Of a stretch of 64,000 nucleotides of DNA, positions 2,792 through 64,000 are shown piece by piece. Source of the DNA: Polaromonas sp. (GTDB lineage: Bacteria; Pseudomonadota; Gammaproteobacteria; Burkholderiales; Burkholderiaceae_C); contig NZ_JACPOF010000029.1 in assembly GCF_016185115.1 (NCBI RefSeq), forward strand, positions 126,530-190,529, given 5' to 3'. The position numbers and the translations under genes are program-made. The notes under the pieces are model-generated. The model saw only the letters and a list, made by a program, of their open reading frames with translations, was not told where the DNA came from and searched no databases. Position 1 is the first letter of the stretch; every line of letters starts with the position of its first letter.

Positions 2792-3775
2792 ATGACACTG
2801 AAATTTTCCTCCATGGCCAGGCTTGCAGTGGCCGCACTGATGGGCGCGACACTTGCCAGCGCACATGCCCAGAGCGGCGCCTATCCACAAAAGCCGGTGC
2901 GCATCTTTGTGGCTGCACCCGCGGGATCGGCGCCCGACCTGATCGCCCGCATCCTCAGTGAAAAGCTGGCCTCGCAACTGGGCCAGCCGGTGATCATCGA
3001 GAACCGGCCCGGCGCAAACGGCATCGTGGCCATGAATGCCCTGAAAGCCGCAGCGCCGGACGGCTACACCATTGCCATGCCGCAGGCGGCTGTGGTGGCC
3101 GTCACGCCCTTCACGTACAAGGATGCGCACTACAACGTCGAACGCGACTTTGAGACCTTTGCCATCGTGGCGACATCGCCCATGCTGTTCGTGACCAACA
3201 TGAGCAACCCCGCCAAAAATCTGGCAGACGCGGCGGCAGCCGCCAAAGCTGCGCCTGACCGTGTGGCGATAGGGAACCCGACGCGTACGTCCATCCCCCA
3301 CCTGGCCGCAGAACTTGCAGGCCTGAAAGCGAACGCAAAATTCCAGCAGGTATCGTTTGCAACCACGGGTCAGGGCATACAGGCAGTCGTCAATGGCGAC
3401 ACTGCGTTTTACGTCGATGGCGTCGGACCGCTCATACAGCTCGTGAAGTCAGGAAGGCTGCGGGCGCTGGCAGTGGCGTCCGAAACGGAATTGCCCGGTC
3501 TTGAAGGCATCCCGCTCGCCAACAAATCCCTGCCAGGGCTCAATGTGTCCGGGTGGTTCAGCATGCAAGCCCCCAAGGGAACGCCCGCTGCGATTCTCCA
3601 GCGCCTGAACAATGAAGTGAAGATTGCGTTGCAATTGCCCGATGTCGTTGCCAAGTTCCGCGACTTCGGCACCTACCCCACACCGGGCAGCGTGGCCGAT
3701 GCGCAAAAGTTCATCAAGGGTGAAATCGACCAGTTCAGCGGCGTGATCCGCACACTCGGGTTGAAGCCGGAGTAA
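2792..3775 (+). CDS. Bug-family (tripartite tricarboxylate transporter) periplasmic solute receptor
   Basis: A 327-residue protein with a cleavable signal peptide ending near ASAHA-QSG, then the Bug signature YPQKPVRIFVAAPAGSAPDLIARIL and QPVIIENRPGANGIVA. The ATG at 2792 follows AGGAG. Bug proteins bind carboxylates or aromatic acids in the periplasm and feed TctA/TctB-type transporters or sensory systems. No membrane subunits are encoded in the window. As the last gene of the aryl-CoA cluster, it probably binds that pathway's substrate or a related acid (inference). Confidence 0.9.
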   Translation: MTLKFSSMARLAVAALMGATLASAHAQSGAYPQKPVRIFVAAPAGSAPDLIARILSEKLASQLGQPVIIENRPGANGIVAMNALKAAAPDGYTIAMPQAAVVAVTPFTYKDAHYNVERDFETFAIVATSPMLFVTNMSNPAKNLADAAAAAKAAPDRVAIGNPTRTSIPHLAAELAGLKANAKFQQVSFATTGQGIQAVVNGDTAFYVDGVGPLIQLVKSGRLRALAVASETELPGLEGIPLANKSLPGLNVSGWFSMQAPKGTPAAILQRLNNEVKIALQLPDVVAKFRDFGTYPTPGSVADAQKFIKGEIDQFSGVIRTLGLKPE

Positions 3776-3791
3776 GGGAGCCATCAGTTGC

Positions 3792-3817
3792 GGCGATAGC
3801 CCAATCCGGCTATCGCC
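3792..3817. terminator. Hairpin between convergent genes
   Basis: A perfect 10-bp stem (GGCGATAGCC / GGCTATCGCC) with a 6-base loop lies between the forward Bug gene and the reverse kinase gene. There is no long T-run, so it may be a weak or factor-assisted terminator serving both sides. Confidence 0.5.
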
Positions 3818-3870
3818 TCAAGCTGCAGTTTCAAAACGGGCGTTCGCAGGGTTTCCCGAACAGGCTTCGC

Positions 3871-5637
3871 TTACAGGCCCACGTCCCGCGCCGCAATCAC
3901 GGCATCTATCAATTCAACCAGCATGGCCGGCTCGACAGGCTTGACCAGGTGCCTGTCGAAGCCCGCTTCATCAGAGCGGCGACGGTCATCTGCCTGTCCC
4001 CAGCCGGTGCATGCCACCATGGTGCGGCCAGCCCCTCCGGGTTGCTCACGAATCTTGCGGCAGGCTTCATAGCCATTGAGCCTGGGCATGCCGATGTCGA
4101 GAAGCACGATCTGGGGGTCGAATTCCGCAGCAGCGCTCACGGCTGCTGCGCCGTCATGCACCTGCCGCACAGCAAATCCTGACAACTCAAGAAATGCGGT
4201 GAGGGTGGCAGCCGCATCCTCGTTGTCATCAGCAACCAGGATGCGAACCTCTGTGTCCTGCACGGGCCTGTCTTCAACAGGTTTATCAGGGGTCTCGACA
4301 ACTTCTGCACGTTCACCCCCGGCAGCCAGGGGCATCCTCACCTCGAACTCGCTGCCAAAACCGAGCCCCTTGCTTCGTGCCTGAACGCTGCCGCCGTGCA
4401 TGGTGATCAATTGTTTTGTCAGTGACAGGCCAATGCCCAGCCCGCCTCGCGACCTGGACAGCGCCGTCTGCACCTGGGAGAAAAGTTCGAACACGCGTTC
4501 CAGCTGATCGCTTGAAATGCCAATACCTGTGTCCTTGATGGTGATCACGGCTTCATGCTGCAATTTCTGGACATCAATGTCTATGCGCCCGCCTTTGTCC
4601 ATGTATTTGGCTGCATTGTTGATAAGGTTCATGAAAGCCTGCGTCAATCGGGTGGAGTCGGCGTCAAACACAAGCTCCTGATCGGGAATCCTCAGCACCA
4701 GTTGATGCCCGCACTCGTCGATCAGCGGCCGGGCTGATTCAATCGCATCCTCGATGATGGACTTCGCGTTTACCCGGTCGCGGCGCAGTTCAATGCGGCC
4801 CTGGTTGATGCGGCTGACATCCATCAAATCGTCTATCAACCGGCTCATCGCCCGGACCTGACGGTCTATGACCTCGGCCGTCCACTGCAGGTCTGGTGTG
4901 CCCGCACCCTTCAGGCGCAGAAGCTGGACGGCATTGCGCACGGGCGCCAGGGGGTTGCGCAGCTCGTGTGCAAGCGTCGCCAGAAATTCGTCCTTGCGCC
5001 GGTTCACATCACGCAACCTGGCCTCACTCGCCTGCAGGGCGTTTGTCCTTTCGGTCACCTTTTTGTCCAGTGTGTCGTTGAGCTCGTTCAGCCGCTCTTC
5101 CGCCCTTCGCCGTTCTGCGATCTCATCCTGCAGCGCGCGGTTGGCGGTTTCCAGGGCACGGCCCCTGCGGTGCAATTCAGCAAAGATCGAAACCTTGGAA
5201 CGCAGCACCGATGCGTTGACAGGCTTGAGAAGGTAGTCAACCGCACCGCTGCCGTAACCCGTAAGAACGTGCTGATCCTCGTTGTAATAGGCCGTGAGGA
5301 AAATGATGGGCACGCGGGCGGTTTTCTTGCGCTCCTTGACGAGCAGGGCCAGCTCGAAGCCGGTCATGTCGGGCATGCGCACATCCAGAACCAGCACCGC
5401 GAACTCATCGGCCATCAGGGCCAGCAGGGCCTCGGAGCCGGATCCAGCCCTGACCAGCCGATAGCCGGGATCATCAAGCACCGTTTCAAGAACCGTGAGG
5501 TTCTTGGGCTCGTCATCAACAATCAGGATATTGACCTGGTCTACAACCGGGGCCAATATTCCCGGCACCGACCCATGGGCGTCGGCGCTCATAGTCCCCT
5601 TTGCAGGCGGTGGCATGGCGTTCACCGGAATAACCAT
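3871..5637 (-). CDS. Hybrid sensor histidine kinase/response regulator (REC - HisKA - HATPase - REC)
   Basis: Up to 588 residues. The N-terminal receiver domain is at about 36-150, with DDE at 41-43, phosphoacceptor D85 and the KPV lysine at 139. A coiled coil follows at about 155-210, then the HisKA box AHELRNPL (H224), a HATPase domain ([24 protein letters not shown]) and a C-terminal receiver at about 465-585 ([20 protein letters not shown]). There is no membrane segment or sensor domain, so input must come through the first receiver. The start overlaps the stop of the giant kinase by 16 bases; ATGs at 5616 and 5592 are alternatives. The arrangement suggests a phosphorelay in which the upstream kinase feeds this one. 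Confidence 0.92.
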
Positions 5638-8600
5638 ACACGCATCAGCGACAGCAACTGGTCGGTATTGACAGGTTTGGCGATGTAGTCGCTGGCACCC
5701 GCATCAAGGCATTTTTCACGGTCACCTTTCATGGCTTTGGCGGTCAGCGCCAGTATCGGGAGGGTACGGAATTTCGGATCCTTGCGGATTTCGCGCATGG
5801 TCTCATACCCGTCCATCTCCGGCATCATGATGTCCATCAGGACCATGACCACATCCGGGCTGTTCTGGATGATCTCGATGGCCTGGCGCCCATTGGTAGC
5901 GCTCAGCACGTCGACTTCGTGGTTTTCCAGCACGGAGGTCAGGGCAAAAATATTACGGGCGTCATCGTCAACGATCAGAACCTTGCGCCCGCGCAGCACT
6001 TCCGCCGAGTTATGCAGTTTATCCAGCATGGCCTGCTTCTGGGGAGGCAGAGCCGTCACGACACGGTGCAGGAACAGCGCGGTCTCATCCAGCAGCCTCT
6101 CCGGCGACTGCACATCCTTGAGCATGATGCTTTTGGCCATGGACTGCAGGCGCGCCTGCTCGTCCCTGCTCAGGTCCTTGCCCGTAAATACGACAACCGG
6201 CACGGCGGCAAGGGCAGGATCAGACTGTACTTTCTCAAGCAAATCAAAACCGGTCATGTCGGGAAGCCTCAGGTCCAGAACGACACAGTCGTAAGAATTC
6301 TCGCGCATGGCCGAGAGTGCATCTTCACCACTTCCGGCTGCCACGATCTCGATATCCTCATAACCTAGAAGTTCGACGACGGCATTGCGCTCCACTTCGT
6401 TGTCCTCAATGATCAGAAGACGTTTTTTGCGCGGTATCGTAAATTCCCTGATGCGGTCGAAAGCCACTTCAAGGCCCGTGGTGGTGGGCTCCTTGACAAG
6501 GTATGCAAAAGCGCCGTGCGCGAGCCCGTGTTGCTGCTCCTCTTCCATCGACACGATCTGCACGGGAATATGGCGCAAGGCGGGGTCGAGCTTCAGCTGG
6601 TTGAGTACCGTCCAGCCCAGCATGTCGGGCAGGAAGATATCCAGTGAAATTGCCGCAGGCTGGTATTGGCGGGCAAGTGCAAGGCCCTGCGCGCCCTTGG
6701 TGGCCACCACGCCCTTGAAGCCCTTGTCCCGGGCAAGGCCCAGCAGGATGCGCGCGTAATGCGGGTCGTCTTCAATGACCAGCAGGACCTGGTCCCCTGG
6801 CCTAATGCTGTCGCGGTCATCTGCGATGTGTTCCTCCCGTGCTGCCGGAAGGGCAATGACGGACCGTGAAATTTCCTTGCCCTGCTCCACGTCACGGGAA
6901 ACGGTGGCGCCATCGGGCCCCGAATAATGAAGCGGAAGATACAGCGTGAAGCAGCTGCCCTGGCCATGAATGCTGGTCAGCCTGATTTCGCCGCCCAGCA
7001 GTACCGCCAGCTCGCGGCTGATCGCCAGCCCGAGGCCAGTACCGCCGTATTTGCGCGATGTGCCGGCATCGGCCTGCTGGAATGCCTCAAAGATGAGCCG
7101 CTGCTTTTCTGGCGCGACGCCTATGCCGGTGTCCTCAACGGCAAAGGCCACAACATGCTGGGCCTGGCTGAGCACTGGATGATCGGCACTCCAGCCTCTT
7201 GACGCCAGCCCCACACGGACCTCCACCTGTCCCTGCGACGTAAATTTGACGGCATTGGACAGCAGGTTTTTGAGAACCTGCTGCAAGCGCTTGGGATCGC
7301 TGTCCATCGAGCGCGGCAGGTCTTCTTCAAACCGGATAAAGAAAGGCAGGTTCTTGGCTTCAGCCACATGGCGGAAATTGCGGTCTATGTTGTCACGCAG
7401 GCTGGCAAACGAAATCTCTTCGACCTCGACAGTCACCGTGCCCGACTCGATCTTGGACAGGTCAAGAATATCGTTGATCAGATGCAACAGGTCCGTGCCT
7501 GAAGAATTGATGTTGCGCGAAAACTCGACCTGTTTGGCAGAAAGCGTGCCCGGTGAATTTTCTGCCAGTTGCTGGCTGAGAATCAAAATGGAATTCAGGG
7601 GCGTGCGCAACTCATGCGACATGTTGGCGAGGAATTCGGACTTGTATTTGGATGTCAGCGCCAGTTCTGATGCCTTTTCCTCAAGCGCTCCACGCGCCTG
7701 TTCCACTTCGCGGTTCTTGCGTTCGACCTCGGCATTCTGCTCGGCCAGCAGACGCGCCTTGGTTCCCAGTTCCTCATTCGTTTGCTGCAATTCACTTTGC
7801 CGTGATTGCAGCTCAACCGTGAGCTGCTGCGACTGCGTCAGCAGGCCTTCCGTACGCACCGTCGCCTCAATGGTGTTGAACACGGCGCCAATACCCAGGG
7901 CGAGCTGGTCGAGGAAATTCAGGTTGACGGCCGTAAAGGGGTGCAGCGACGCGAGTTCGATGACGGCCTTGGGCTCGTTCTCGAACAGGACCGGCAAAAC
8001 AACAATGCTGACATGCAGTGAATCACCGAGGCTTGACGAAATGTTGACAAAGTCCGAAGGCACGTTCGTGAGCAATATGCGTTTTTTCTCAAGTGCGCAT
8101 TGCCCGACCAGCCCCTCCCCGGGCCTGATCGTGGAAGGCAACCTGACGCTTCCCGACTGTGCGTAGCTTGACAGCAGCGTCATGCCGGCAGTGTCACCCG
8201 CTCCGCTGCAGTGGTAGACGGTGCCCTGGTGTGCATGCACCAGCGGGGCAAGTTCCGACAGCAGCATCTTGCCCACCGTATTCAGTTCACGCTGGCCCTG
8301 CAACATGCCCGTAAAACGCGCCAGATTGGTCTTGAGCCAGTCCTGCTCACGGTTGCTTTCCGTGGTCTCGCGCAGGTTGGAGATCATGGTGTTGATGTTG
8401 TCCTTGAGTTCGGACACCTCACCCTTGGCATCGACCTGGATGGAGCGCGTCAGGTCGCCTTTGGTGACCGCTGTGGCCACCTCGGCAATGGCACGCACCT
8501 GCGTGGTCAGGTTGGCCGCCAGAAGGTTGACGTTGCCGGTCAGGTCCTTCCAGGTACCTGCTGCACCGGGCACGTTGGCCTGGCCACCAAGCCGGCCGTC

Positions 8601-52842: not shown

Positions 52843-53742
52843 CTAGAAAAGGCTGCCCTGCCCTTTTGCAGCGGCCGGCCTGAAGCGGCTCAGATCAAGT
52901 TCGATGCGCTGGCGGTTAAAGCCCAGTTTTCGGGTGGCTTTTTCAAACCGCTGTCGAATCATGTCTGCCCACAAACCCTGGCCTTTCATGCGTGAAGCGA
53001 AGTCGCTGTCGTAGTCCTTGCCGCCGCGCATGTCGTGAATGCGCGCCATGATGCGTGCGGCACGCTGCGGGTAATGCAGTTCAAGCCACTCCCTGAAGAT
53101 GGGAGCCAGTTCCCACGGCAAGCGGATAACGGTATAAAACGCGCTGCGTGCACCTGCCTCCCACGCGGCTTTTAAAACCTGTTCCATGTCATCGTTCACG
53201 AACGGGATTTGCGGCGCCAGGCTCACGCCCACAGGAATGCCGTGTTCCACCAGTGTCTTGATCAGTCGCAAGCGCCTGTGCGGCGCAGCGGCACGCGGTT
53301 CAAGCTTGCGCGCGAGTTCTGCGTCCAGCGTGGTGATGGTCACGTAGACGGCCGCCATGTTTTCTTTTGCCATGGCGGCAATCAGGTCGAGGTCACGCTC
53401 CACGCCCGCCGACTTGGTGACCAGTGAAAACGGGTGACGCGTCTCCTGCAGCACTTCAATCACGCTGCGCGTCAGTCGCAGTTCGCGCTCGACCGGCTGG
53501 TAGCAATCGGTGGCAGATCCGATATTGAGCAGGTGCGGCACGTAACTCTTTCTGGCCAGGTCCCGTCGCAGCACCTGGGCGATGTTGCGCTTGGCGATGA
53601 TTTTTGTTTCAAAGTCCAGGCCGGGCGAGAGGTTCAGGTAGCTGTGCGTGGGCCGGGCGTAGCAGTAGACGCAGCCATGCTCGCAGCCGACCCAAGTCCC
53701 CCCTAGATTTCCATACATAAAGGAAATTAAGGGATTTTTCAT
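52843..53742 (-). pseudogene. PA0069-type radical SAM protein, 5'-truncated
   Basis: Residues 17 onward match the radical-SAM/spore-photolyase-like PA0069 family: GCEHGCVYCYARPTHSYLNLSPGLDFETKI with the three cluster cysteines, then a complete C-terminal part ending AKGQGSLF. Full-length members have about 50-80 further residues ending INPYxGCEHGC. Here the family match stops abruptly at 53688, and the open frame upstream (MKNPLISFMYGNLGG) is unrelated AT-rich DNA. The SAM core is intact, so a shortened enzyme might be made from the ATG at 53742, but the gene has lost its native start and promoter. Confidence 0.75.
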
Positions 53743-53960
53743 TGGGAAAAGTAAATACTGCGAAGTATGGAAATATGGATGGATTTTCTTAGTGAGTACA
53801 TTCTTTCCTATAAGTCGTACTTTAGGAGCTGAATAAGCAGCCTTCTCAAATCAAGAAGACTTTTTCATTTTGTAGAAATCGGCCGAAAAGTAAACGCCGA
53901 GTGACAAGGCTGCCTCTTTGCGCTCGCTGAGTGCTCGACAATGGTTGGGGGGATAAAGAC
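53689..53960. other. AT-rich junction region at the left edge of an acquired segment
   Basis: Base composition changes sharply at 53689, where the radical-SAM family sequence ends. The next 270 bases are AT-rich, hold no credible gene and lead into the metallopeptidase gene. No tRNA or clear attachment repeat is visible. Confidence 0.55.
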
Positions 53961-54800
53961 ATGAATAAGATTCTTTTTGGTGTTCTGCTCTTCGCGGGTT
54001 GCTGTTTAAAGTCCTATGCCGCCCTGCCGTTCGAGCAGCTTTTGTACAAGGGTCGGGCGATCCCGTTTTACGGGGTGTCACAGGATGCCACCCAGCAGCA
54101 ATTGCTAGATGCTGTTAAGAGGTCAAATCTGTCAGAACGCATGGCGGGTATGACAAACGCGACCCTACACCTCAAGAGTGACATTGGCGTTGGATTCGAA
54201 TCCTGTGGATCGGTCAATGCTTTTTACTCGCGACAGCGACATGCCGTTGTGATTTGTTCCGAATTAATAGAGACCATAGGCAAGCTGGCGGTGGCTGACC
54301 AGGATGTCATGGGCAAACTTCCGCGAGAACAGTTCGCCAAGGTACTTGATGGCTTGATTTGGGGCATTTACTTCCACGAACTCGGACATGCGCTTGTTGA
54401 TACAAACCGAATTTCTATCACGGGACGCGAAGAGGATGTTGCCGATCAATTCGCTGTCTGGTTTGCATTGAACTACGTGGATCTCAGCAGGCAGCCCATC
54501 CTGATGCCCACTATCTGGTTTTGGCGGGAAATGTCCAAAGCCAGAAACCTTCCGACCATGAGCCAGGATCAGTTGAGGCATTTTCTTTCAGACGAACATA
54601 GTCTGGATGAGCAACGAATCTACAACTTGGCATGCTGGGCTTATGGGAGCAATACGCCTGCCGGAAACGGTGCCGCGCGCTACGCTCGCCTACCGGAGCA
54701 AAGAGCTCAACGATGCGCAGGGGAATATGCGTCGGTTGATCGAGGCATGATGACCCATTTCAGAAAATTTTTCAGATTACGCCCATTGACCGCTCGCTAG
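53961..54800 (+). CDS. Secreted DUF4344-like metallopeptidase
   Basis: 279 residues from ATG 53961, preceded by GGGGGG. The signal peptide MNKILFGVLLFAGCCLKSYA may be cleaved by the Sec peptidase, or lipidated at the AGC. The zinc motif is HELGH at 139-143 (IYFHELGHALVD), with downstream acidic ligands in EEDVADQFA (about 157-165). This matches the putative metallopeptidase family DUF4344. It lies upstream of the IetAS-like pair, same strand, with a 147-base gap, so it may be part of the same mobile segment and not the same transcript. Function unknown. Confidence 0.8.
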   Translation: MNKILFGVLLFAGCCLKSYAALPFEQLLYKGRAIPFYGVSQDATQQQLLDAVKRSNLSERMAGMTNATLHLKSDIGVGFESCGSVNAFYSRQRHAVVICSELIETIGKLAVADQDVMGKLPREQFAKVLDGLIWGIYFHELGHALVDTNRISITGREEDVADQFAVWFALNYVDLSRQPILMPTIWFWREMSKARNLPTMSQDQLRHFLSDEHSLDEQRIYNLACWAYGSNTPAGNGAARYARLPEQRAQRCAGEYASVDRGMMTHFRKFFRLRPLTAR

Positions 54801-54947
54801 CGCAACACCTAAAAACTGCCTCCGCCAGCGAATTGTTAATTTATCCGAAATCGAAACGACTTGGCGTAAAAACGAAACAAAATAGCTGTTTTTCGAATCA
54901 CGTATGCGATAAACTGAAACAGATATCTACATTATCGGTACAGGTCC

Positions 54948-56114
54948 GTGCAATATCTTTCTGAAGTACTCAAAATATTAGACGGCGCGCTCAAGGCCAA
55001 TGCGGGTATGGCCAGCAACTATGCGGGCTTGCTGGCTGACAAGCTTGACCAGGAAGGTGAGCGCCAGCAGGCACGGCAACTGCGGGAAAGGCTGGCACGT
55101 GTTGTTCCTGCTTTGGTGTCAGCTCAAGATGCCGGGCACGGGGTAAGCATGGGGCAATTGCCGACCGACAATGAAAGTCGGCTCAACACGGTAGATGTAA
55201 GTCGCCCACAAAGCCGAGACATAGATCTTGTATTGCCTGACGCAATTCAAGGACGTCTTGACGAATTCCTGCAATGCGTCCGTCACCATGACCAATTGGT
55301 TAGGGCTGGCGCGGCTCTGCCCAATCGGGTTTTGATTTATGGCCCCCCGGGGACCGGCAAGACTCAAACAGCTCGATGGCTATCGGGACAACTAGAACTC
55401 CCGCTGCTGACTGTGCGGTGCGACACCTTGGTGAGCAGCTTGTTGGGGCAAACCAGCCGAAATTTGCGCCGGGTCTTTGACTACGCGGAGCAAACCCCGT
55501 CGGTTCTCTTTCTGGATGAGTTTGATGCGCTCGCAGGGGCGCGCGGGAATGAACGTGATGTAGGGGAACTGCAGCGCGTGGTGATTGCCTTGCTGCAAAA
55601 CATCGACGCCTTGCCTGATAGCACTATTCTTGTGGCTGCCACCAACCATGAGCAGCTTCTTGATGCTGCTATTGGAAGAAGATTCGCTTTTCACATACCT
55701 ATGCCTCTACCGGACGCATCGCTACGCACCGTCTTGTGGCAACGATGGTTGGGGTCTTATGCCCCAGCCAGTATTGACTGGGATGAACTCAGCGACTTAT
55801 CTTCCGGTGCTACCGGCGCTGTAATTGAGCATGTGTGCATGGACGTCAAACGCACAGCCATCCTGTCAGGCCAGGCCTTGATTGACAAGAACGAGTTGTA
55901 CCGGCGCCTGGGACTAACCCAAGCCATGGCCTCGCAAGAGCGTTTGAGCACCACAGAACAGGAAATCGTCTGGCTGCGGCAATGGGCTCCTGAGCATTTT
56001 TCATTGCGTGCGCTTGCTGGGATGTACAACCTTTCCACCCGTAAGATCACCAGTATTATTCAAGCAAAAAAGGGAGGCAGCCATGGCAACAAAAAAGGGG
56101 TCGGCCGACGGTGA
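54948..56114 (+). CDS. AAA-family ATPase, IetA-like (antitoxin/regulator of the subtilase)
   Basis: A 388-residue protein with a GTG start at 54948. A helical N-terminus (1-100) is followed by an AAA domain: Walker A GPPGTGKT (132-139), Walker B VLFLDEFD (186-193), the sensor ATN (231-233), an arginine-finger-like GRR at 243-245, and a C-terminal small HTH-like segment (FSLRALAGMYNLSTRKITSII). The 3' end overlaps the subtilase start by 32 bases. AAA-ATPase plus cytoplasmic subtilase is the IetA-IetS arrangement: IetA from the pTiC58 plasmid neutralises the protease (family knowledge). The assignment rests on architecture, not on sequence comparison. Confidence 0.8.
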   Translation: MQYLSEVLKILDGALKANAGMASNYAGLLADKLDQEGERQQARQLRERLARVVPALVSAQDAGHGVSMGQLPTDNESRLNTVDVSRPQSRDIDLVLPDAIQGRLDEFLQCVRHHDQLVRAGAALPNRVLIYGPPGTGKTQTARWLSGQLELPLLTVRCDTLVSSLLGQTSRNLRRVFDYAEQTPSVLFLDEFDALAGARGNERDVGELQRVVIALLQNIDALPDSTILVAATNHEQLLDAAIGRRFAFHIPMPLPDASLRTVLWQRWLGSYAPASIDWDELSDLSSGATGAVIEHVCMDVKRTAILSGQALIDKNELYRRLGLTQAMASQERLSTTEQEIVWLRQWAPEHFSLRALAGMYNLSTRKITSIIQAKKGGSHGNKKGVGRR

Positions 56115-58371
56115 GGCCGCACCCGCGCCGCCCGGACCCAGCCCAACCAATCCATTTATTCTCGTGCCACACGCCGTGGCAGATCTGCAGAACTACGAGG
56201 CCGGTGGTGGGGGCACCACTGAACTTGTGCCGGTTACTCAGGCGGTCCGCGAGGAATTGGCGGGAACTCTGCGGGAGACCCGGGCATCCTTGGCCGCAAC
56301 TCTGCAAAGCTACCCCAATCTGCTCAGCACGGTGGTGTTGAGATTGCGGGAAACGGGCATTGCCAAATCCCATCGGCCTCTGAATCTCATCGAACGGGCA
56401 GGACTGGAGTCTGCGGGTCACGCCCACCTGGACGAAATGCTGGTTGGCAGCTCTGCCGCGGGTTTGCAGCAGTTGGAGCAGGTGATTTACGAAGGCTCAA
56501 CACAGGTCCTGCGGGCCAATATAAGCGCCATTGCGCGCATTGAGCCTTGGACGCGTCAAAAACGCAATCCTGAGGGTTCCCTTGCCTTACGTCAAAACGG
56601 TAGCGCACTGCTCCGATTGTTTCGGTACTGGAACGATGAAGCGACTGCAACAACTCGCGCCAATGTTCTGGCTCTGCTCGAACTGTTGGACGTGAAGTTT
56701 CATGTTCTTCAAGGGATTGGGTCGGGACTCCTGCTCAAACTCGAAGATCTTGATCATGTCGACGATCCCGTCCTTGATTTGATTCTCGACCATCCGGGAA
56801 TCCGCACTGCGAGCACCGAGCCATTGGTGCTTACGGCGGCCACTGGCGCGCCTGCTGCAGTCGCCACTGTAGCTGGGCTTCCGTTTTTTGGTGTGCCGTC
56901 GGCCGGCCTTCCGACTGTTTCGGTTTTCGACTCCGGCACAGCCGCCGGAAACGCTGCACTGGCACCATGGATAAGCAGTCGTGGCTCTTACGTCCTGCCA
57001 CCAGAGACTGATCATGTGCATGGCACTGCAGTTGCTTCTCTGGTCGCTGGCGGCAAAGCGTTGAATCCGACTTTTGCTTGTCCGCCTTGCGTTGTGCATG
57101 ACATTGCGGCTATGGAAACCGCTGGAAGTCCCCTTGCTGTTCTGGCCGAACGTTTACGCGATGCGGTCGCCCTGCGTCCGGATATCAAAGTGTGGAACTT
57201 GTCACTCGGAGTCAATGCGCCTTGCGATCCCGATCTGTTCGGTGAACTGGCACAAGTTCTCGACACACTTTCAGATCGCCATGGCGTCCTGTTTGTGGTC
57301 GCCGCCGGCAACTATTTATCTGCACCGCGTCGTACCTGGCCACCGGATAAAACCATGACGGCTGACCGGCTGTCAACTCCTGGTGATTCGGTGCGAGCTC
57401 TGACGGTTGGATCCATCAGCCACGCCGACTCAGCGGACACACTCAGTCTGGCAGGCGAACCAGCACCCTATTCGAGGCGCGGTCCCGGACCTGTATTTAC
57501 ACCTAAACCGGACATTGTTCACCATGGCGGTAACGTGCATACCCCATGGACAGGTGGCCAGTCCTCTACCCGTGTGCTCGCACCGGATGGGGCAACTTAT
57601 GCGAGCTTCGGGACAAGTTTTGCCGCGCCACTTGCCTCGGCCATGGCAGCTCATGTCTGGCAATCGCTCGAGGGACACCCCGCGTTGCAGGCTAATCCGG
57701 CGCTGGTCAAAGCACTCATGATTCATGCTGGCCAGCTATCCGGGCCCGCCTACCAGGGATGGGAGCGCAGGTATTTTGGCGCGGGCTTGCCGCTTGATGC
57801 CATGAGCGTTTTGTTTGACCGTGACGACAGTTTCACCATGGTGTTTGAAGCCAGCCTGATCCCCGGCGCTTGGCGCTGGAGAAAGTCAAACTATCCCATA
57901 CCCGCGGCACTACGCCACCACGGCAAGCTGCGCGCCGAGGTCATCATGACGGCAGCTTACACGCCACCGCTCAATCCAAGTTTTGGCGCTGAATACGTCA
58001 GAGCCAATCTCGAATTGGGTTTTGGCGTTGAGGACGCAGACGGGTTTAAAGGTAAGGTCCCTCTGTTAGGTGAAGAGGGGACCACGGGGTATGAATCCGA
58101 GCAGGTGGAGTACGGCGGCAAGTGGGCACCGGTCAAAGTTCATCGACGAAAATTTCCCCAAGGTGTTGCCGGTGACGTGTGGGCGCTGAACGCAAAGTTG
58201 ATGTTGCGTGCCTTTGAGCCACCTTTGCAGGAAGCCCTGAGAGCTTACATAGTGGTCACTCTGCGCGCGACTGATGGAGACACGAGAGTTCATGCCCAGG
58301 GTATCCACGCACTGCAGGCCCGTAACTGGGTGCAGCACGCCTTGCCGCTGCGCGTGCCAATTGTTGTTTAA
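56083..58371 (+). CDS. Cytoplasmic S8 (subtilisin-like) protease, IetS-like
   Basis: A 762-residue protein. The ATG at 56083 follows AGGGAGGC; no signal peptide. The catalytic triad is intact: D283 (VSVFDSGT), H313 (DHVHGTAVAS), oxyanion N410 (VVAAGN) and S512 (FGTSFAAP). An N-terminal region of about 270 residues before the protease domain is helical and unrecognised, and may hold the substrate- or ATPase-binding part. A beta-rich C-terminal 220 residues follows. The lack of export and the translational overlap with an AAA ATPase fit a toxin/defence protease kept inactive in the cell (inference from IetAS). Confidence 0.87.
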   Translation: MATKKGSADGEAAPAPPGPSPTNPFILVPHAVADLQNYEAGGGGTTELVPVTQAVREELAGTLRETRASLAATLQSYPNLLSTVVLRLRETGIAKSHRPLNLIERAGLESAGHAHLDEMLVGSSAAGLQQLEQVIYEGSTQVLRANISAIARIEPWTRQKRNPEGSLALRQNGSALLRLFRYWNDEATATTRANVLALLELLDVKFHVLQGIGSGLLLKLEDLDHVDDPVLDLILDHPGIRTASTEPLVLTAATGAPAAVATVAGLPFFGVPSAGLPTVSVFDSGTAAGNAALAPWISSRGSYVLPPETDHVHGTAVASLVAGGKALNPTFACPPCVVHDIAAMETAGSPLAVLAERLRDAVALRPDIKVWNLSLGVNAPCDPDLFGELAQVLDTLSDRHGVLFVVAAGNYLSAPRRTWPPDKTMTADRLSTPGDSVRALTVGSISHADSADTLSLAGEPAPYSRRGPGPVFTPKPDIVHHGGNVHTPWTGGQSSTRVLAPDGATYASFGTSFAAPLASAMAAHVWQSLEGHPALQANPALVKALMIHAGQLSGPAYQGWERRYFGAGLPLDAMSVLFDRDDSFTMVFEASLIPGAWRWRKSNYPIPAALRHHGKLRAEVIMTAAYTPPLNPSFGAEYVRANLELGFGVEDADGFKGKVPLLGEEGTTGYESEQVEYGGKWAPVKVHRRKFPQGVAGDVWALNAKLMLRAFEPPLQEALRAYIVVTLRATDGDTRVHAQGIHALQARNWVQHALPLRVPIVV

Positions 58372-58584
58372 CCATCGACAACTGCCTGCCGAAGCAGCTT
58401 CGCGAGCTCCCTGTTGTTAAGGCATTCAATGGCCTACAGCAGATAGACCAATAACCCCACAGCTCAAAACGTCAGATTGCTTATTCTGAGAATTGTGCTT
58501 CTTGTTTGCATGGCGACGCTCAGTTGCGCATGCGAATTTGGCACCGGTCCGTGAATCAATTCTTTAACTACCAGGAGCCATCAG

Positions 58585-58956
58585 ATGATTTCCAAATACA
58601 ACAGCAAGGCTATGCTCTTCTCCGCTATCGCGGTAGCAGCAGCAATGTTCTTGCCATTGGCGAATGCCCAAACCCCCATGGCTGGGGGTATGGACATGAA
58701 GGCCATGATGAAGGACAACAACGACAAAATGTCATCCATGGCCATGACGGGTAATGCGGATGTCGACTTTGCGATGATGATGAAAATTCACCACCAAGGA
58801 GCCATCGACATGGCTCAAGCCGAACTCAAGAACGGTAAAGAACCGCAAATGCGCAAGATGGCACAGAACATCATTGCTGCCCAGAAAAAGGAAATCGCAC
58901 AGTTCGACAAATTTCTGGCGAAGCACGGTCATCCCACCGACAAGATGAGCAAGTAA
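58585..58956 (+). CDS. DUF305-family periplasmic protein
   Basis: A 123-residue protein: signal peptide to LANA-QTP, a Met-rich linker (GGMDMKAMMKDNNDKMSSMAM), then the ferritin-like DUF305 domain with DVDFAMMMKIHHQGAIDMAQAEL and MAQNIIAAQKKEIAQFDKFLAKHG. Met/His-rich DUF305 proteins are often linked with copper or silver handling. The ATG follows CAGGAGCC. It stands alone. Confidence 0.88.
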   Translation: MISKYNSKAMLFSAIAVAAAMFLPLANAQTPMAGGMDMKAMMKDNNDKMSSMAMTGNADVDFAMMMKIHHQGAIDMAQAELKNGKEPQMRKMAQNIIAAQKKEIAQFDKFLAKHGHPTDKMSK

Positions 58957-58997
58957 TCGGCAGTCTAGGTCCCGCCGCATTGCGCTGATGAATAGTC

Positions 58998-60317
58998 TTA
59001 TTCGCCAACGGATGCGTCCGGAGTTGTATAGACAGGTGCAAATCCGCCGCCTGAGGTCCTGAAATTGGTGGTTTGCCCCTGATATACGCGGGCGCTGAGC
59101 CACTGAACACTGGCGTTGTATGCATAAGCGCGCAGGTCAAACTTCATTGACACAGGCGAGTCAACCCTTCCAGTGGATCTTGCACCAGGCTTGACCATTT
59201 CCTGAGCGACATAATCACCCGCCAGAATATCCTGCCAAACGCCCTTGGTAAGCTTGTCGCCGCGGTAGGCAGCGCGACTGCCAAAACCTGCAACGGGTTT
59301 GAAGAAAAGGCTGCGGCGCGCAGCCCAAAGACGCTGCGCATCGGCCGCTTCGACTACCTCCGTCCTCGGAATATTTTCAAGCAGGATCTTCTGGACAGAA
59401 GGTGGCACACCCAAACCCTCCAGCTGTCGCGCATCACTTAAAAGGGCGAGCCGCCTTTTGTTGGCATACAGCGCATGAGCCTGCGGATGCGGTGTCAAAA
59501 CAATCCCTTCAAGAAGGTAAGCCTCACGCAGGGCTGAGCTTTCAGGTAGCTCAAGATAAAAGTCAGTTAATCGGTTGTAAACCAGATCGACTACTTGAAT
59601 CCCATGTCGCAAGGCGCCGTCACGCCACTCGAATTCCGACGGGTCTGCAATGATGGTATGTAACCCATGCCTCTCGAACAGCTTTTGGAACAGCAGAAAC
59701 TCGGGGTATAGATACTGATCCCAAGGAGATGAATCCACGATGGCAATTGTCTTTAACGGTACCGTTCGTCCGGCCAGCGCCCACTCGTGGCGGAACATGC
59801 CCACTATCGCTTTTTCGAAGCTTTCAATCTCGGCAGGCGTAGGAGCCATCGCTCCCAAATCAGCGCAGCAAGCCCTATGGGCTCGGGCCATGACGGCATT
59901 TAACATCGCGCCGCCGGCATTGGTGTTGATCTCGATCAGTCCAAGATGCCCATCAATGAGATGAAAGTCATAGCCAAAAAATACCCCAAGCGCCCCTGTG
60001 GGTGCCAGTTGAGCGACCGTTGGTGAACCTGCCAACACCAGCTCGCGGTACTGGGGCATGGCAACTACAGACTCAACGGCTCGGACCACCTCGGCCATCT
60101 GCCGTATGTGCTGCGCACCCACAAAAACCGGTTGTGAGGCAAAAAGATAAGGGCAACGCTGCTTAACCATGGCCGACAATTCTTCGGTACCAAGTTCCGA
60201 ATCCAGGGCACATGCCAATGCTGTTTGATCAAGGCTAAGACAAAAGCACTCCTGATTCAGCAATTCGACCGCACCGCTTGAAGCACAAGGTAGTTGCGAC
60301 GAGGATTGATTATTCAT
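58998..60317 (-). CDS. ATP-grasp-like enzyme of unknown substrate
   Basis: A 439-residue protein. Two segments suggest an ATP-grasp ligase: GYDFHLIDGHLGLIEINTNAGG (115-136; the E-I-N pair is a usual Mg2+/ATP ligand) and RSLFFKPVAGFGSRAAYRGDKLTKG (335-359; the Lys and Gly-rich loop bind phosphate). The order, metal site before Gly-rich loop, is unlike the standard arrangement, so it may be circularly permuted (inference). Such enzymes join a carboxylate to an amine or thiol. Located downstream of an MFS gene; together they could make and export a peptide-like compound. Confidence 0.7.
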   Translation of the reverse strand: MNNQSSSQLPCASSGAVELLNQECFCLSLDQTALACALDSELGTEELSAMVKQRCPYLFASQPVFVGAQHIRQMAEVVRAVESVVAMPQYRELVLAGSPTVAQLAPTGALGVFFGYDFHLIDGHLGLIEINTNAGGAMLNAVMARAHRACCADLGAMAPTPAEIESFEKAIVGMFRHEWALAGRTVPLKTIAIVDSSPWDQYLYPEFLLFQKLFERHGLHTIIADPSEFEWRDGALRHGIQVVDLVYNRLTDFYLELPESSALREAYLLEGIVLTPHPQAHALYANKRRLALLSDARQLEGLGVPPSVQKILLENIPRTEVVEAADAQRLWAARRSLFFKPVAGFGSRAAYRGDKLTKGVWQDILAGDYVAQEMVKPGARSTGRVDSPVSMKFDLRAYAYNASVQWLSARVYQGQTTNFRTSGGGFAPVYTTPDASVGE

Positions 60318-60332
60318 AAGTGATTGTCTTAT

Positions 60333-61637
60333 TCATTGAGACGCCGTCGGTCTCTTCGCATCAGTATCGATATTTGGTAGTTTTCCAGCGGCGATCTCGC
60401 CCATCCGGGCCGGCCCCCACCAAACCAGCGACAGGGCAGCGCCAGCCAACAATACCAGCGCGGCGGTCCAGAATGGTGCCATCGGTGCCAACGTGAACAA
60501 TGAGCCAGCGCCCATTGATCCAAGCGCCTGTCCGAGATTGCCGGCCGCAGCTTGCTGACCAAGCAATGTTCCAGGCGCAGCCGACTGGCGCTCCAGCAAT
60601 TCATATGACAAAACCGGGCCTATCATCCCTGCAGCGGTCGCAACCACTGCGATCATCAAACCTAGCGATCCTGCGTCAGGTGCAAACGACGTAAAAGCCA
60701 GCGCAATGGCCGAGCTGGCAAATGCTGCAGCCATCCAACGCTGGTCAATGCGGTTTCGCACCGATGAAAAGAGCAACAAAGACTGCGCCGCGAGCATCGC
60801 GAGGCTGCAAGTGATGAACATCGCGGCCATCGCCGCAGTGGTCAACCCGAGTGTCTGGCTACCAAACAGATTGAACCCAACTTCGAAAGTACCCACCGCA
60901 AACGACGACAACAATGCCAGAAGCATTGATGAATGCAAAAAGCGCTTGCGGGATACACCTGGTTGCGCGGCGATTGGCTCGACGACGCGGTTCGAGCCAA
61001 GACACCATGGAGCCAGTAACAGCAGTGGCAGGCCCGCCAAGGCGACCGCCATAGCCGGCCAGTTCAGCATGCCTCCCATCTGTCCCACGGTCACGCCCAT
61101 CACCGGCCCGGCAAGCCACGTACCGAATGCTGGGCCGGCGAGAAAGCCGATGAAGGAAGCGCTGCCCAGCAGTACGAAGCGGCGACTGCGATCAACTGTC
61201 GTGCTGAAGTCGGCAATGTAGGCCTGCGCCGTTGGTACGATCGCAGCGGCACCGGCACCTGCGAGCACCCTTGCGCCGTAGACGACTTCCAGGCTAGGTG
61301 CGAGCGCAATTGCCACGCTGCCGACTAGGAACGCAGCAAAACCAATCAGCAGCACCAGAACGCGCCCATGCCTATCCGAGAGTCGGCCCCAGAGCGGCGC
61401 GAACATAAAAAGCGCGAATAGATAGATGCCCCCCAGCATGCCGACGTGCCAAGCCACGTTCGACGCAGGCACAGCATCAAGGTAACGCAGCAGATAGGGC
61501 CGAATCAGTGGCAGGCCTGCACCGTAGCCCAGCGAAACCACGAAGACCATCGCGCCCAGCAGTGCCATCGCACCCTTGGCAATGGACGATGGAGTCCTTG
61601 GAGATCGTTCGAAGCCACCATAAACATCAGTAGCCAT
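60333..61637 (-). CDS. Major facilitator superfamily transporter
   Basis: A 434-residue, 12-helix protein with the loop motif GRLSDRHGRVLVLL after helix 2 (typical MFS motif A) and AGAGAAAIVPTAQAYIADFSTTVDRSRRF, which matches the drug-exporter type. The ATG at 61637 lies 4 bases after the small membrane-protein stop, so the two are co-transcribed. The next gene downstream encodes the ATP-grasp-like protein. Substrate unknown. Confidence 0.93.
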   Translation of the reverse strand: MATDVYGGFERSPRTPSSIAKGAMALLGAMVFVVSLGYGAGLPLIRPYLLRYLDAVPASNVAWHVGMLGGIYLFALFMFAPLWGRLSDRHGRVLVLLIGFAAFLVGSVAIALAPSLEVVYGARVLAGAGAAAIVPTAQAYIADFSTTVDRSRRFVLLGSASFIGFLAGPAFGTWLAGPVMGVTVGQMGGMLNWPAMAVALAGLPLLLLAPWCLGSNRVVEPIAAQPGVSRKRFLHSSMLLALLSSFAVGTFEVGFNLFGSQTLGLTTAAMAAMFITCSLAMLAAQSLLLFSSVRNRIDQRWMAAAFASSAIALAFTSFAPDAGSLGLMIAVVATAAGMIGPVLSYELLERQSAAPGTLLGQQAAAGNLGQALGSMGAGSLFTLAPMAPFWTAALVLLAGAALSLVWWGPARMGEIAAGKLPNIDTDAKRPTASQ

Positions 61638-61641
61638 GTCG

Positions 61642-62073
61642 CTATCGTCTTGCGACGTAAAGAACGAAGCCTGCCAGCCAGGCCAGCACCGGGAACAGCA
61701 ACAACCACCTGAAATCAGAGTGGAGTGCAAAGTTGATTGAGCTCATGAGTGCAACCGTCAGCAACCCGGACATTGCAACAGCCCATGACGCGCCCCTCAA
61801 ACGCGAGGGAATCGCAACGCGCGCCGCAAAAATGGTGAGTACGCCTGTGCCTGCCATAAATCCCCCCATCACGATGAATACCCGTTTTAGCCAGCCCTCC
61901 AGGCCAGGGAGTGCAGTCCGAACTTGCTCAAGAGAGCTGCCCATGAACCTCGTATCTTCCGGTAACAAGGGGGGCCGCAGGAAGATAAAGTAAAGACCTA
62001 GTGACACAAGCCAGATTCCGCAGGCGATAAGCAGCCACATCGAGAGATGAGGAGTTCGGATGGGGGCGCTCAT
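61642..62073 (-). CDS. Small integral membrane protein of unknown function
   Basis: 143 residues from ATG 62073; ATG 62085 is an alternative. Four predicted helices: LSMWLLIACGIWLVSLGLYFIF, VFIVMGGFMAGTGVLTIFAAR, WAVAMSGLLTVALMSSINFAL and LLLFPVLAWLAGFVLYVARR. No family recognised. It links the TPM/lemA operon with the MFS gene through short gaps. Confidence 0.75.
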   Translation of the reverse strand: MSAPIRTPHLSMWLLIACGIWLVSLGLYFIFLRPPLLPEDTRFMGSSLEQVRTALPGLEGWLKRVFIVMGGFMAGTGVLTIFAARVAIPSRLRGASWAVAMSGLLTVALMSSINFALHSDFRWLLLFPVLAWLAGFVLYVARR

Positions 62074-62096
62074 GGTGAAATCCATTCTTAATTGCT

Positions 62097-62591
62097 TCAA
62101 AGAACTACCGGTCTGTCCGGCAGCTCATTCTGTTGATCGTCGACTGGGAAGTGCTGCACAAGGTGCTGTTTCGCGGCCAACACGCCGCCAATCACCCCGC
62201 CCTCATAGTTCGACTGCTTGAATGCAGCCTCCATCTGGCGGCAAACCTTGCTCCACTCTTCGGCGCCTATCCGGGCGTGGATTCCCCGATCAGCCACGAT
62301 CTCCACCGCTCGATCAGCGAGCAACAGATAGATCAGCAAGCCGTTATTGTGCTCGGTGTCCCATACGCGCAGCTGAGCGAAAAGTTCGATCGCCCGACTT
62401 CTGGGCGACTGTCCCTTGAAAAGTGGCATGCCGTCCAGTGACCCTTCAACCACGAACCGGATCTCTCCAGCATGCGCGGCCTCACTGGCTTTGATCGCAG
62501 CCTCGATAGCGTTCAATGCGCTTCGGGGAAAGGCTCGTGTGACCTGACCGTGTGTTGTCAGCAAGTGCTTCAAGATGCGTAGAGTTTTCAT
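62097..62591 (-). CDS. TPM-domain protein (small, non-secreted)
   Basis: 164 residues; the ATG at 62591 has GGAGG 8 bases before it. A TPM (TLP18.3/Psb32/MOLO-1) domain: AIEAAIKASEAAHAGEIRFVVE, LFAQLRVWDTEHNNGLLIYLLLADRAVEIVADRGIHARIG. No signal peptide is obvious, unlike the larger TPM protein upstream. Bacterial lemA-TPM-TPM operons are common; the function is unproven. Confidence 0.88.
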   Translation of the reverse strand: MKTLRILKHLLTTHGQVTRAFPRSALNAIEAAIKASEAAHAGEIRFVVEGSLDGMPLFKGQSPRSRAIELFAQLRVWDTEHNNGLLIYLLLADRAVEIVADRGIHARIGAEEWSKVCRQMEAAFKQSNYEGGVIGGVLAAKQHLVQHFPVDDQQNELPDRPVVL

Positions 62592-62593
62592 GA

Positions 62594-63448
62594 TCACCAC
62601 CTCCCCGACGCACCGCCACCACCGAAGCCGCCACCGCCACCACGGAATCCACCACCTCCACCTTGACCGCCTCCACCGTAATAGCCACCCAAACCACGCA
62701 TCCCGTGCCCTCTCATGCCTCCACCGAGCAAGGTGAACAACAGTGCGATCACACCCGCACCTAGAGCCATAGACACGGCACCGACGACGAACCAGGCAAT
62801 CAGGGCGACGACCCCGCCCGTGACCAATGAGCCGGGAACCTTGCCAAGCGCGGCGCGCAGCACGCTGCCTACGGCGATGGCAAGAATGAAGAGCATGGGC
62901 GCGTATTGTTGAAACCCACCGATATTCCTGGCGGGGGTGTTGCTGGGGGCGGGCAACGGCTCTCCGTCAACGACACGGATGATCTGCTCGATCCCGGCCG
63001 TAATGCCTCCATAGAAGTCTTGTGCCTTGAAGCGCGGGAGGAGGATTTCCCCGATGATGCGTTTGCTTGTGAGGTCTGTGAGCGCTCCTTCCAGACCGTA
63101 TCCCACCTCGATTCGGACGGCGCGGTCGTCTTTCGCAACGACCAGAATGGCGCCGTCATCCACCTTCTTGCGTCCGAGCTTCCACTGCTCTGCAACACGC
63201 AAGGCGTATTGCTCGACGGCCTCCGGTGCTGTCGAAGCGATCATCAGCACTGCGAGTTGGCTGCCTTTCCTGGCTTCGAACGCTGTCAGCGTTTGCTCCA
63301 GGGTGGCTTTTTGCTCCGCAGTGAGGGTGCCGGTCAGGTCGGTGACATGCCCATTCAAAGACGGAATCGGCACTTGCGCCATGACGAGGCCGGACCAACT
63401 GAGTGCGCATGCAACAAGCAGTACCCTAACGGTTCTACTCGTCGTCAT
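62594..63448 (-). CDS. Secreted TPM-domain protein with Gly-rich C-terminus (YgcG-like)
   Basis: 284 residues from ATG 63448; a GTG at 63460 overlapping the lemA stop is possible. The signal peptide ends near VMA-QVP. The TPM domain (28-160) includes LNGHVTDLTGTLTAEQKATLEQTL and DDRAVRIEVGYGLEGALTD. Two membrane segments follow, then a Gly/Arg-rich tail ending GGGASGRW. This layout is the classic YgcG/TPM partner of LemA. Confidence 0.93.
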   Translation of the reverse strand: MTTSRTVRVLLVACALSWSGLVMAQVPIPSLNGHVTDLTGTLTAEQKATLEQTLTAFEARKGSQLAVLMIASTAPEAVEQYALRVAEQWKLGRKKVDDGAILVVAKDDRAVRIEVGYGLEGALTDLTSKRIIGEILLPRFKAQDFYGGITAGIEQIIRVVDGEPLPAPSNTPARNIGGFQQYAPMLFILAIAVGSVLRAALGKVPGSLVTGGVVALIAWFVVGAVSMALGAGVIALLFTLLGGGMRGHGMRGLGGYYGGGGQGGGGGFRGGGGGFGGGGASGRW

Positions 63449-63456
63449 GCCCGTGA

Positions 63457-64000
63457 TCACTTGGCCACCCCGGAAGCCGTCGCCGCAGGCTTGACGGGTG
63501 CTGTATCGAAACCAACGCTTGGCGGCCTGGAGATTTCTTTTTCGTTTTCGACCGTGAAGTTGGCTTTTTCTTTGTAGCCCATCACCATCGCCGTCAGATT
63601 GGACGGGAAGGACCGCACCGTCACGTTGTAGTTTTGTACTGACTGGATATAACGGTTGCGCGCGACCGTTATACGGTTCTCAGTGCCTTCCAGCTGTGCA
63701 GACAGGTCGCGGAAGCCTTGGTTCGCTCTCAGGTTCGGATAATTCTCCGACACAGCCATGAGTCTGGACAGTGCGCCTGTCAATTGCCCCTGAGCGGCCT
63801 GAAATTTCTGGAATGCTGCGGGATCATTAATGAGTTCCGGGGTGGCCTGGATAGACGTGGCCTTGGACCGTGCCTCAATCACTTTGGTCAGCGTATCCTG
63901 CTCGAACTTCGCCTCCCCTTTGACGGTATTCACAAGGTTGGGCACCAGGTCCGCACGCCGCTGGTACTGGTTGATCACCTCGGACCAGCTCGCCTTGACC
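63457..64000 (-). CDS. LemA family protein (partial, N-terminus beyond the window)
   Basis: About 180 residues from the edge to the stop at 63457. INQYQRRADLVPNLVNTVKG, SRLMAVSENYPNLRANQGFRDLSAQLEGTENRITVARNRYIQSVQNYN and SFPSNLTAMVMGYKEK are the typical LemA coiled-coil core. The N-terminal membrane anchor lies to the right of the window. It is the first visible gene of the lemA-TPM-TPM operon. Confidence 0.95.
   Translation of the reverse strand, partial: VKASWSEVINQYQRRADLVPNLVNTVKGEAKFEQDTLTKVIEARSKATSIQATPELINDPAAFQKFQAAQGQLTGALSRLMAVSENYPNLRANQGFRDLSAQLEGTENRITVARNRYIQSVQNYNVTVRSFPSNLTAMVMGYKEKANFTVENEKEISRPPSVGFDTAPVKPAATASGVAK

What the first reader, a model, noticed from the sequence alone, without database searches (positions are those of the whole stretch)
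54948..58371. IetAS-like AAA-ATPase/subtilase pair: candidate toxin-antitoxin or phage-defence system
The two genes overlap by 32 bases. The ATPase has complete Walker A/B motifs; the protease has an intact Asp-His-Ser triad and no signal peptide. A cytoplasmic subtilase coupled to an AAA ATPase is the known IetA-IetS arrangement, described as a Ti-plasmid stability system and tested as an anti-phage system. Here it is chromosomal, next to a gene broken by insertion. The roughly 270-residue N-terminus of the protease is unrecognised and may set the trigger.
Basis: partly seen in the sequence, partly recalled or inferred. Interest (0 to 1): 0.82.

Follow-up and report, generated by a model that had tools for sequence, protein, structure and literature searches.

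The report
IetAS defence pair on mobile island
Two neighbouring bacterial genes form a known kind of anti-virus switch (a protease toxin thought to be held in check by an ATPase), sitting at the edge of a large mobile piece of DNA that has inserted into a chromosomal gene; the protease may also carry a built-in safety catch.

Summary
ietA (54948-56114) and ietS (56083-58371) overlap by 32 bases, and both proteins pass curated NCBIfam equivalog cut-offs (552 vs 510; 1015.7 vs 900 bits) and match PADLOC IetA/IetS. This is an intact member of a known defence / toxin-antitoxin family.

Three additions. (1) The "broken gene" is a radical-SAM gene split by an island of about 82.4 kb; its 5' part lies 82 kb away, same contig and strand. 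The far end carries gmtY-gmtZ-gmtX, the gamma-mobile-trio genes, so ietAS is terminal cargo of a mobile island. (2) The "unrecognised" protease N-terminus: the predicted model superposes residues about 157-251 on the propeptide of unprocessed pro-subtilisins; sequence profiles do not show this. (3) Related pairs lie in a prophage-like record, on a plasmid beside Shedu, in viral contigs and in a defence island.

Best explanation: IetS is a latent cytosolic protease toxin restrained by IetA and released during phage replication. Function was not tested; the mechanism is inferred.

The parts
54948..56114 (+). ietA: AAA+ ATPase, 388 aa, proposed antitoxin/regulator
   Evidence: PADLOC IetA E 5.6e-142; NCBIfam NF042959 552 bits over cut-off 510; most Walker A/B residues and R244/R245 at 97% or more in 120 listed homologues
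56083..58371 (+). ietS: S8 subtilase without visible signal peptide, 762 aa, proposed toxin/effector
   Evidence: PADLOC IetS E 5e-268; NCBIfam NF042956 1015.7 bits over cut-off 900; D283/H313/N410/S512 at 97% or more in 120 listed homologues
56551..56835 (+). IetS residues 157-251: predicted propeptide-like domain
56833..56907 (+). IetS residues 251-275: variable, low-confidence linker between propeptide-like and protease domains
   Evidence: pLDDT means 69 and 64 for 251-260 and 261-270; composition and length vary in 120 homologues
56072..56077 (+). GGGAGG Shine-Dalgarno-like sequence of ietS inside ietA
   Evidence: direct reading
53961..54800 (+). DUF4344 putative metallopeptidase gene between island end and ietA; no evidence that it is part of the system
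   Evidence: Pfam PF14247 E 1.1e-49; no PADLOC match
52843..53688 (-). 3' part of the PA0069-family radical-SAM gene interrupted by the island
   Evidence: NF033668 388.5 bits, profile 65-348 only; junction defined against seven uninterrupted relatives
53689..64000 (.). window part of the island of about 82.4 kb (C28:180218-262612); the rest lies beyond the window
   Evidence: 5' part of the radical-SAM gene at C28:262613-262855, junctions, gmtY/Z/X at far end, GC 0.60 left of the junction and 0.48 in 53689-54947

Best explanation
This is an intact IetAS anti-phage / toxin-antitoxin operon carried at one end of an island of about 82.4 kb with gamma-mobile-trio genes at the other end. Proposed working (inferred): the two overlapping genes are made together; IetA, an AAA+ ATPase of the p97/FtsH/proteasome-ATPase type, binds IetS and keeps it inactive while being able to release it. 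IetS is made as a latent cytosolic subtilase whose propeptide-like domain (about 157-251) caps the active site, with a flexible linker (251-275) leading to the protease domain. During phage replication, or if IetA is lost with the mobile element, the brake is released and IetS cleaves cell proteins, stopping growth before the phage matures. Shown here: identity, intact frames, conserved active sites, mobile setting. Inferred: the zymogen latch, IetA as brake, the trigger and the substrates.
For: Both proteins pass curated equivalog cut-offs and match PADLOC models. Catalytic and ATPase residues conserved in the 120 listed homologues each. ietA lies upstream of ietS on the same strand in 33 of the 37 loci given. 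The two proteins diverge in step: r 0.72 over all 32 pairs with equal contig length, 0 of 2000 permutations as high. Mobile/defence settings: this island, a Rac-like phage record, a plasmid beside Shedu, 24 viral contigs, a G032 locus with JAB, E1-E2 and capP matches. Mycoplasma AAA-ATPase/subtilase pair: deletion of the ATPase alone is reported lethal and the ATPase neutralised the protease (PMC8562856, passages). Passages of two papers link phage replication proteins with ietAS (PMC10286901; PMC10732053). The model superposes on unprocessed pro-subtilisins.
Against: No functional data for this copy. The propeptide-like domain has no sequence support: Pfam listed no I9 match in 19 fragments, a fragment profile against PDB found no subtilase propeptide, and the whole-protein profile matched PDB subtilases from about position 262 on only. 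Ferredoxin-like folds are common, and AlphaFold2 may copy the learned pro-subtilisin arrangement. The mycoplasma pair was not compared by sequence here, and its authors call their E. coli and B. subtilis data rather inconclusive overall. Many of the viral loci show the same identities and are probably one prophage group.
Confidence: 0.62

Rival explanations
1. IetAS is a classical energy-dependent protease: IetA unfolds proteins (phage or host) and hands them to IetS, as FtsH or the proteasome ATPases do, so that the ATPase is an activator and not an antitoxin.
For: IetA's AAA module is closest in sequence and fold to p97, proteasome ATPases and FtsH; conserved gene order and co-divergence.
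Against: In the mycoplasma pair the protease is toxic without the ATPase and the ATPase neutralises it (PMC8562856, passages). A subtilase with an open surface site does not need threading (general knowledge).
Confidence: 0.23
2. The pair is mainly an addiction module that stabilises the mobile island or plasmid, with phage defence a by-product.
For: Position at the end of an integrated island; plasmid relatives; the title of the pTiC58 paper, seen in the reference list of PMC8562856, speaks of high stability and incompatibility of the Ti plasmid.
Against: Other loci are a phage accessory site and a chromosomal defence island, where plasmid stability is not at stake. Addiction and defence do not exclude each other, so this rival overlaps the best explanation.
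Confidence: 0.3
3. The locus is a decaying remnant with no present function.
For: The KfrA_N-type gene found next to or near ietAS in R. bucti, the WB4_5_117 MAG, G032 and plasmid p1-T1 is not upstream of ietA here.
Against: Both reading frames complete, motif residues present, overlap preserved, full-length alignment to relatives at about 76-81% identity.
Confidence: 0.05

Closest known systems
IetAS (NCBIfam IteA/IteS, PADLOC IetA/IetS) anti-phage system
   Same: Both proteins over curated cut-offs, ATPase gene first, overlapping genes, conserved active-site residues.
   Different: Nothing found that removes it from the family; the setting is an island with gamma-mobile-trio genes, and a DUF4344 gene lies upstream where four relatives have a KfrA_N gene next to or near the pair.
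Mycoplasma mycoides AAA-ATPase/subtilase toxin-antitoxin module TA132/3 (PMC8562856, passages)
   Same: Enzyme types and sizes (353 and 757 aa there, 388 and 762 here).
   Different: Sequences not compared here; there tested in cells, here not.
Unprocessed pro-subtilisins (pro-subtilisin E 3whi, ProN-Tk-SP 3afg)
   Same: Predicted arrangement of propeptide-like domain and protease.
   Different: Those are secreted enzymes (general knowledge); IetS has no visible signal peptide, has an extra N-terminal part (about 23-156), and shows no detectable propeptide sequence similarity.
Gamma-mobile-trio islands (GmtY/GmtZ/GmtX)
   Same: All three trio proteins over NCBIfam cut-offs at the far end of the island.
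   Different: Here inserted in a radical-SAM gene of a genome that is probably Burkholderiales (nearest named genome: Rhodoferax bucti). The defining paper (Mahata 2024) is not held, so I cannot say whether IetAS cargo or this target is already described.

Membership tests
IetAS anti-phage system | ATPase passes IetA/IteA profile | tested here: met
   NF042959 552 bits, cut-off 510; PDLC02196 E 5.6e-142
IetAS anti-phage system | S8 peptidase passes IetS/IteS profile | tested here: met
   NF042956 1015.7 bits, cut-off 900; PDLC02197 E 5e-268
IetAS anti-phage system | Adjacent genes, ATPase first, catalytic residues intact | tested here: met
IetAS anti-phage system | Protects against phage | not testable with these tools
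   needs a phage-challenge experiment
Type II toxin-antitoxin module | Protease toxic alone, neutralised by ATPase | not testable with these tools
   reported for a mycoplasma pair in PMC8562856 (passages), not for this one
Subtilisin zymogen with propeptide (Inhibitor_I9 type) | I9 sequence profile match | tested here: not met
   Inhibitor_I9 not among the families listed for 19 fragments at E up to 10 (HMMER filters drop most weak matches); full IetS gave only Peptidase_S8 at E up to 0.01
Subtilisin zymogen with propeptide (Inhibitor_I9 type) | Propeptide fold in propeptide position | tested here: inconclusive
   predicted model aligns to 326 of 355 residues of unprocessed pro-subtilisin E, against about 242 of 275 for mature subtilisins; a prediction only
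Gamma-mobile-trio island | GmtY, GmtZ, GmtX together | tested here: met
   463.7 vs 340, 621.3 vs 600, 173.4 vs 40 bits
Gamma-mobile-trio island | Element excises or moves | not testable with these tools
   only the two junctions and uninterrupted relatives were compared

The most novel reading that the evidence does not exclude
IetS is a cytosolic zymogen: a divergent, sequence-invisible propeptide domain (about 157-251) caps the active site, and the IetA ring works on this cap, holding it in place in peace and pulling it off when phage replication proteins engage the ring. This would make IetAS an ATPase-gated zymogen defence, spread among other routes by gamma-mobile-trio islands that insert at one place in a radical-SAM gene.
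Probability: 0.3. Interest if true: 0.62.

Novelty: new member of a known kind. Interest (0 to 1): 0.38.

Why it matters
A 2023 paper still calls the ietAS mechanism undescribed (PMC9958689, passages). The predicted propeptide-like cap turns 'how is the protease kept silent and switched on?' into a bench question with residue numbers. The island finding ties an IetAS pair to gamma-mobile-trio genes and to a gene that is interrupted at nearly the same place in a second genome, which helps explain the patchy spread (over cut-off in 2 of 61 related genomes, own genome included). The membership itself is ordinary.

Tried and rejected
Tandem duplication of the propeptide-like domain: residues 48-157 and 158-255 of the 120 homologues compared by hhalign gave probability about 0.4%, below the best of 30 column-shuffled controls (top six 0.53-0.88%), so rejected.

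I9 propeptide by sequence: not found with a 19-sequence fragment profile against PDB (best row 7uek, molecule OT3, E 0.0011, no subtilase among the 5 rows) nor in Pfam. The reading rests on the predicted structure alone.

Promoters and terminators: 3 found against 2.7 expected and 5 against 5.5, so none is claimed. Inverted repeats upstream of ietA are short and imperfect.

Terminal repeats of the island: one shared 9-mer near the two ends, not at the junctions; by eye a weak AAGT..CCCC likeness of both ends, not tested. The two gmtY loci of G024 have different sequence outside gmtY and no end sequence shared with this island.

Other defence genes on the island: ten island proteins were scanned with PADLOC; two had matches, a type II restriction enzyme model (L035:18546-19808, 2.5e-16, part of the profile) and a partial mads_2 match. 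Most other island proteins were not scanned.

KfrA_N gene as a third component: found by Pfam next to or near ietAS in four loci, but in p1-T1 it is on the opposite strand with an integrase between; not claimed as part.

Co-divergence: my first count (30 pairs chosen by hand, r 0.87) had left out two equal-length pairs; with all 32 pairs r is 0.72, and 0.80 over 30 when the ambiguous contig length 9184 is dropped. One pair (length 9784) is discordant and may be a chance match of lengths.

Papers: ietAS searches showed no mechanism paper in their listings; subscription papers are mostly not held, so this says nothing about the whole literature. Yamamoto 2009, Gao 2020, Stokar-Avihail 2023 and Mahata 2024 were not read (titles or citations only, in part recalled).

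Direct comparison with the founding Ti-plasmid proteins was left out: I fetched no virulence plasmid.

Full report
Observation. Chance is excluded by family profiles: PADLOC IetA 5.6e-142 and IetS 5e-268; NCBIfam equivalogs NF042959 and NF042956, both over the curated cut-off. Over their Pfam cut-offs, IetA has AAA (and marginally AAA_5) and IetS has Peptidase_S8.

Anatomy. In the 120 listed homologues per protein, most Walker A and B residues, R244 and R245 of IetA, and D283, H313, N410 and S512 of IetS reach 97% conservation; P133 and F188 do not. These 120 are the best listed of 365 (IetS) and 2209 (IetA) matches, from capped candidate lists, so they are close relatives; distant ones were not counted. 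IetA models as an N-terminal helical part of low confidence, the AAA core, and a C-terminal helical part; its core resembles p97, FtsH and proteasome ATPases.

Setting. The radical-SAM ORF 52843-53742 is a 3' remnant. Of 37 same-genus genomes 9 have a match to it. In seven of the eight others the gene reads through the junction. In this genome the missing 5' part is at G000:C28:262613-262855, same strand, same contig. The retained parts end at window 53688 and C28:262613. The material between, C28:180218-262612, is 82,395 bases, give or take a base at the junction. Its far end carries gmtY, gmtZ and gmtX, each over its NCBIfam cut-off, with integrase-type Pfam matches for gmtY and gmtZ. GC is 0.60 left of the junction and 0.48 in the first 1.26 kb to its right. 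In the eighth relative, G006, the frame is also broken within a few codons of the same place, and the DNA there encodes a protein 74% identical to one of this island; its 5' part was not found in a genome 82% complete. So the site seems to be hit more than once. By reading the translations, much of the island looks like metal-resistance cargo; only one such protein, a heavy-metal P-type ATPase, was checked by profile.

Relatives and neighbourhood. Of 61 related genomes (own included), 8 had any match to the IetS family and 2 passed the cut-off, G000 and G032. In G032 the pair lies near JAB, E1-E2 and capP matches. A plasmid of Acidovorax carries it between an integrase and Shedu; a Rac-like Escherichia phage record carries it between replication and antitermination genes. 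In viral contigs 24 loci encode relatives, many with the same identities and probably one prophage group. Of the 37 loci given to tblastn, 33 have both genes on one strand, ietA upstream; L003 and L032 are the same place; the four without both are L005 (neither at that threshold), L010 (ietA only), L015 and L081 (part of ietS only). I did not give that call the own-genome loci L001 and L002 nor the weak matches L006-L009 and L011-L013. Pairwise identities of IetA and IetS correlate (r 0.72 over all 32 pairs of equal longest-contig length, 0 of 2000 permutations as high); this shows linkage and shared history, not contact.

How it works. From papers seen as passages: the mycoplasma AAA/subtilase pair behaves as antitoxin and toxin, clearest in a mycoplasma host (PMC8562856); phage replication proteins are listed in connection with ietAS (PMC10286901; PMC10732053); the mechanism was called undescribed in 2023 in a paper where the reference ietAS system went with an ICE integrase in 91% of positives (PMC9958689). 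With the conserved active sites this favours a restrained protease toxin. The cap suggests where the restraint acts. Whether IetA holds, removes or ignores the cap is open, and the unfoldase-protease and addiction rivals remain.

Verdict. The extra value is the mobile island and the testable zymogen model.

Noticed in passing
53961-54800: DUF4344 metallopeptidase gene with an apparent leader sequence (by reading). Of 61 related genomes 3 have a match (G000, G032, G040); within the 37 of the same genus only G000 and G032, the same two that hold an over-cut-off ietS, and in G032 it lies about 6 kb from ietA. Only two cases.
   Followed up: partly
L014:7674-8720, L017:5107-6153, L032:10803-11777, L019:4410-5408: KfrA_N-type DNA-binding gene next to or near ietAS in four relatives, not upstream of ietA in the window.
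   Followed up: partly
L028 around 1500: The same radical-SAM gene in G006 is broken within a few codons of the same place by DNA with a gene 74% identical to an island gene, suggesting an integration hot spot.
   Followed up: partly
L056 and L057: G024 has two near-identical gmtY loci whose sequence is the same up to one point outside gmtY and then runs into two similar but different stretches.
   Followed up: no
L035:18546-19808: Island protein with a partial type II restriction enzyme PADLOC match (2.5e-16).
   Followed up: no
L032:12396-14658 and 2892-6322: G032 locus holds JAB, E1-E2, DUF6791-ThiF and capP matches around ietAS, apparently a defence island.
   Followed up: partly
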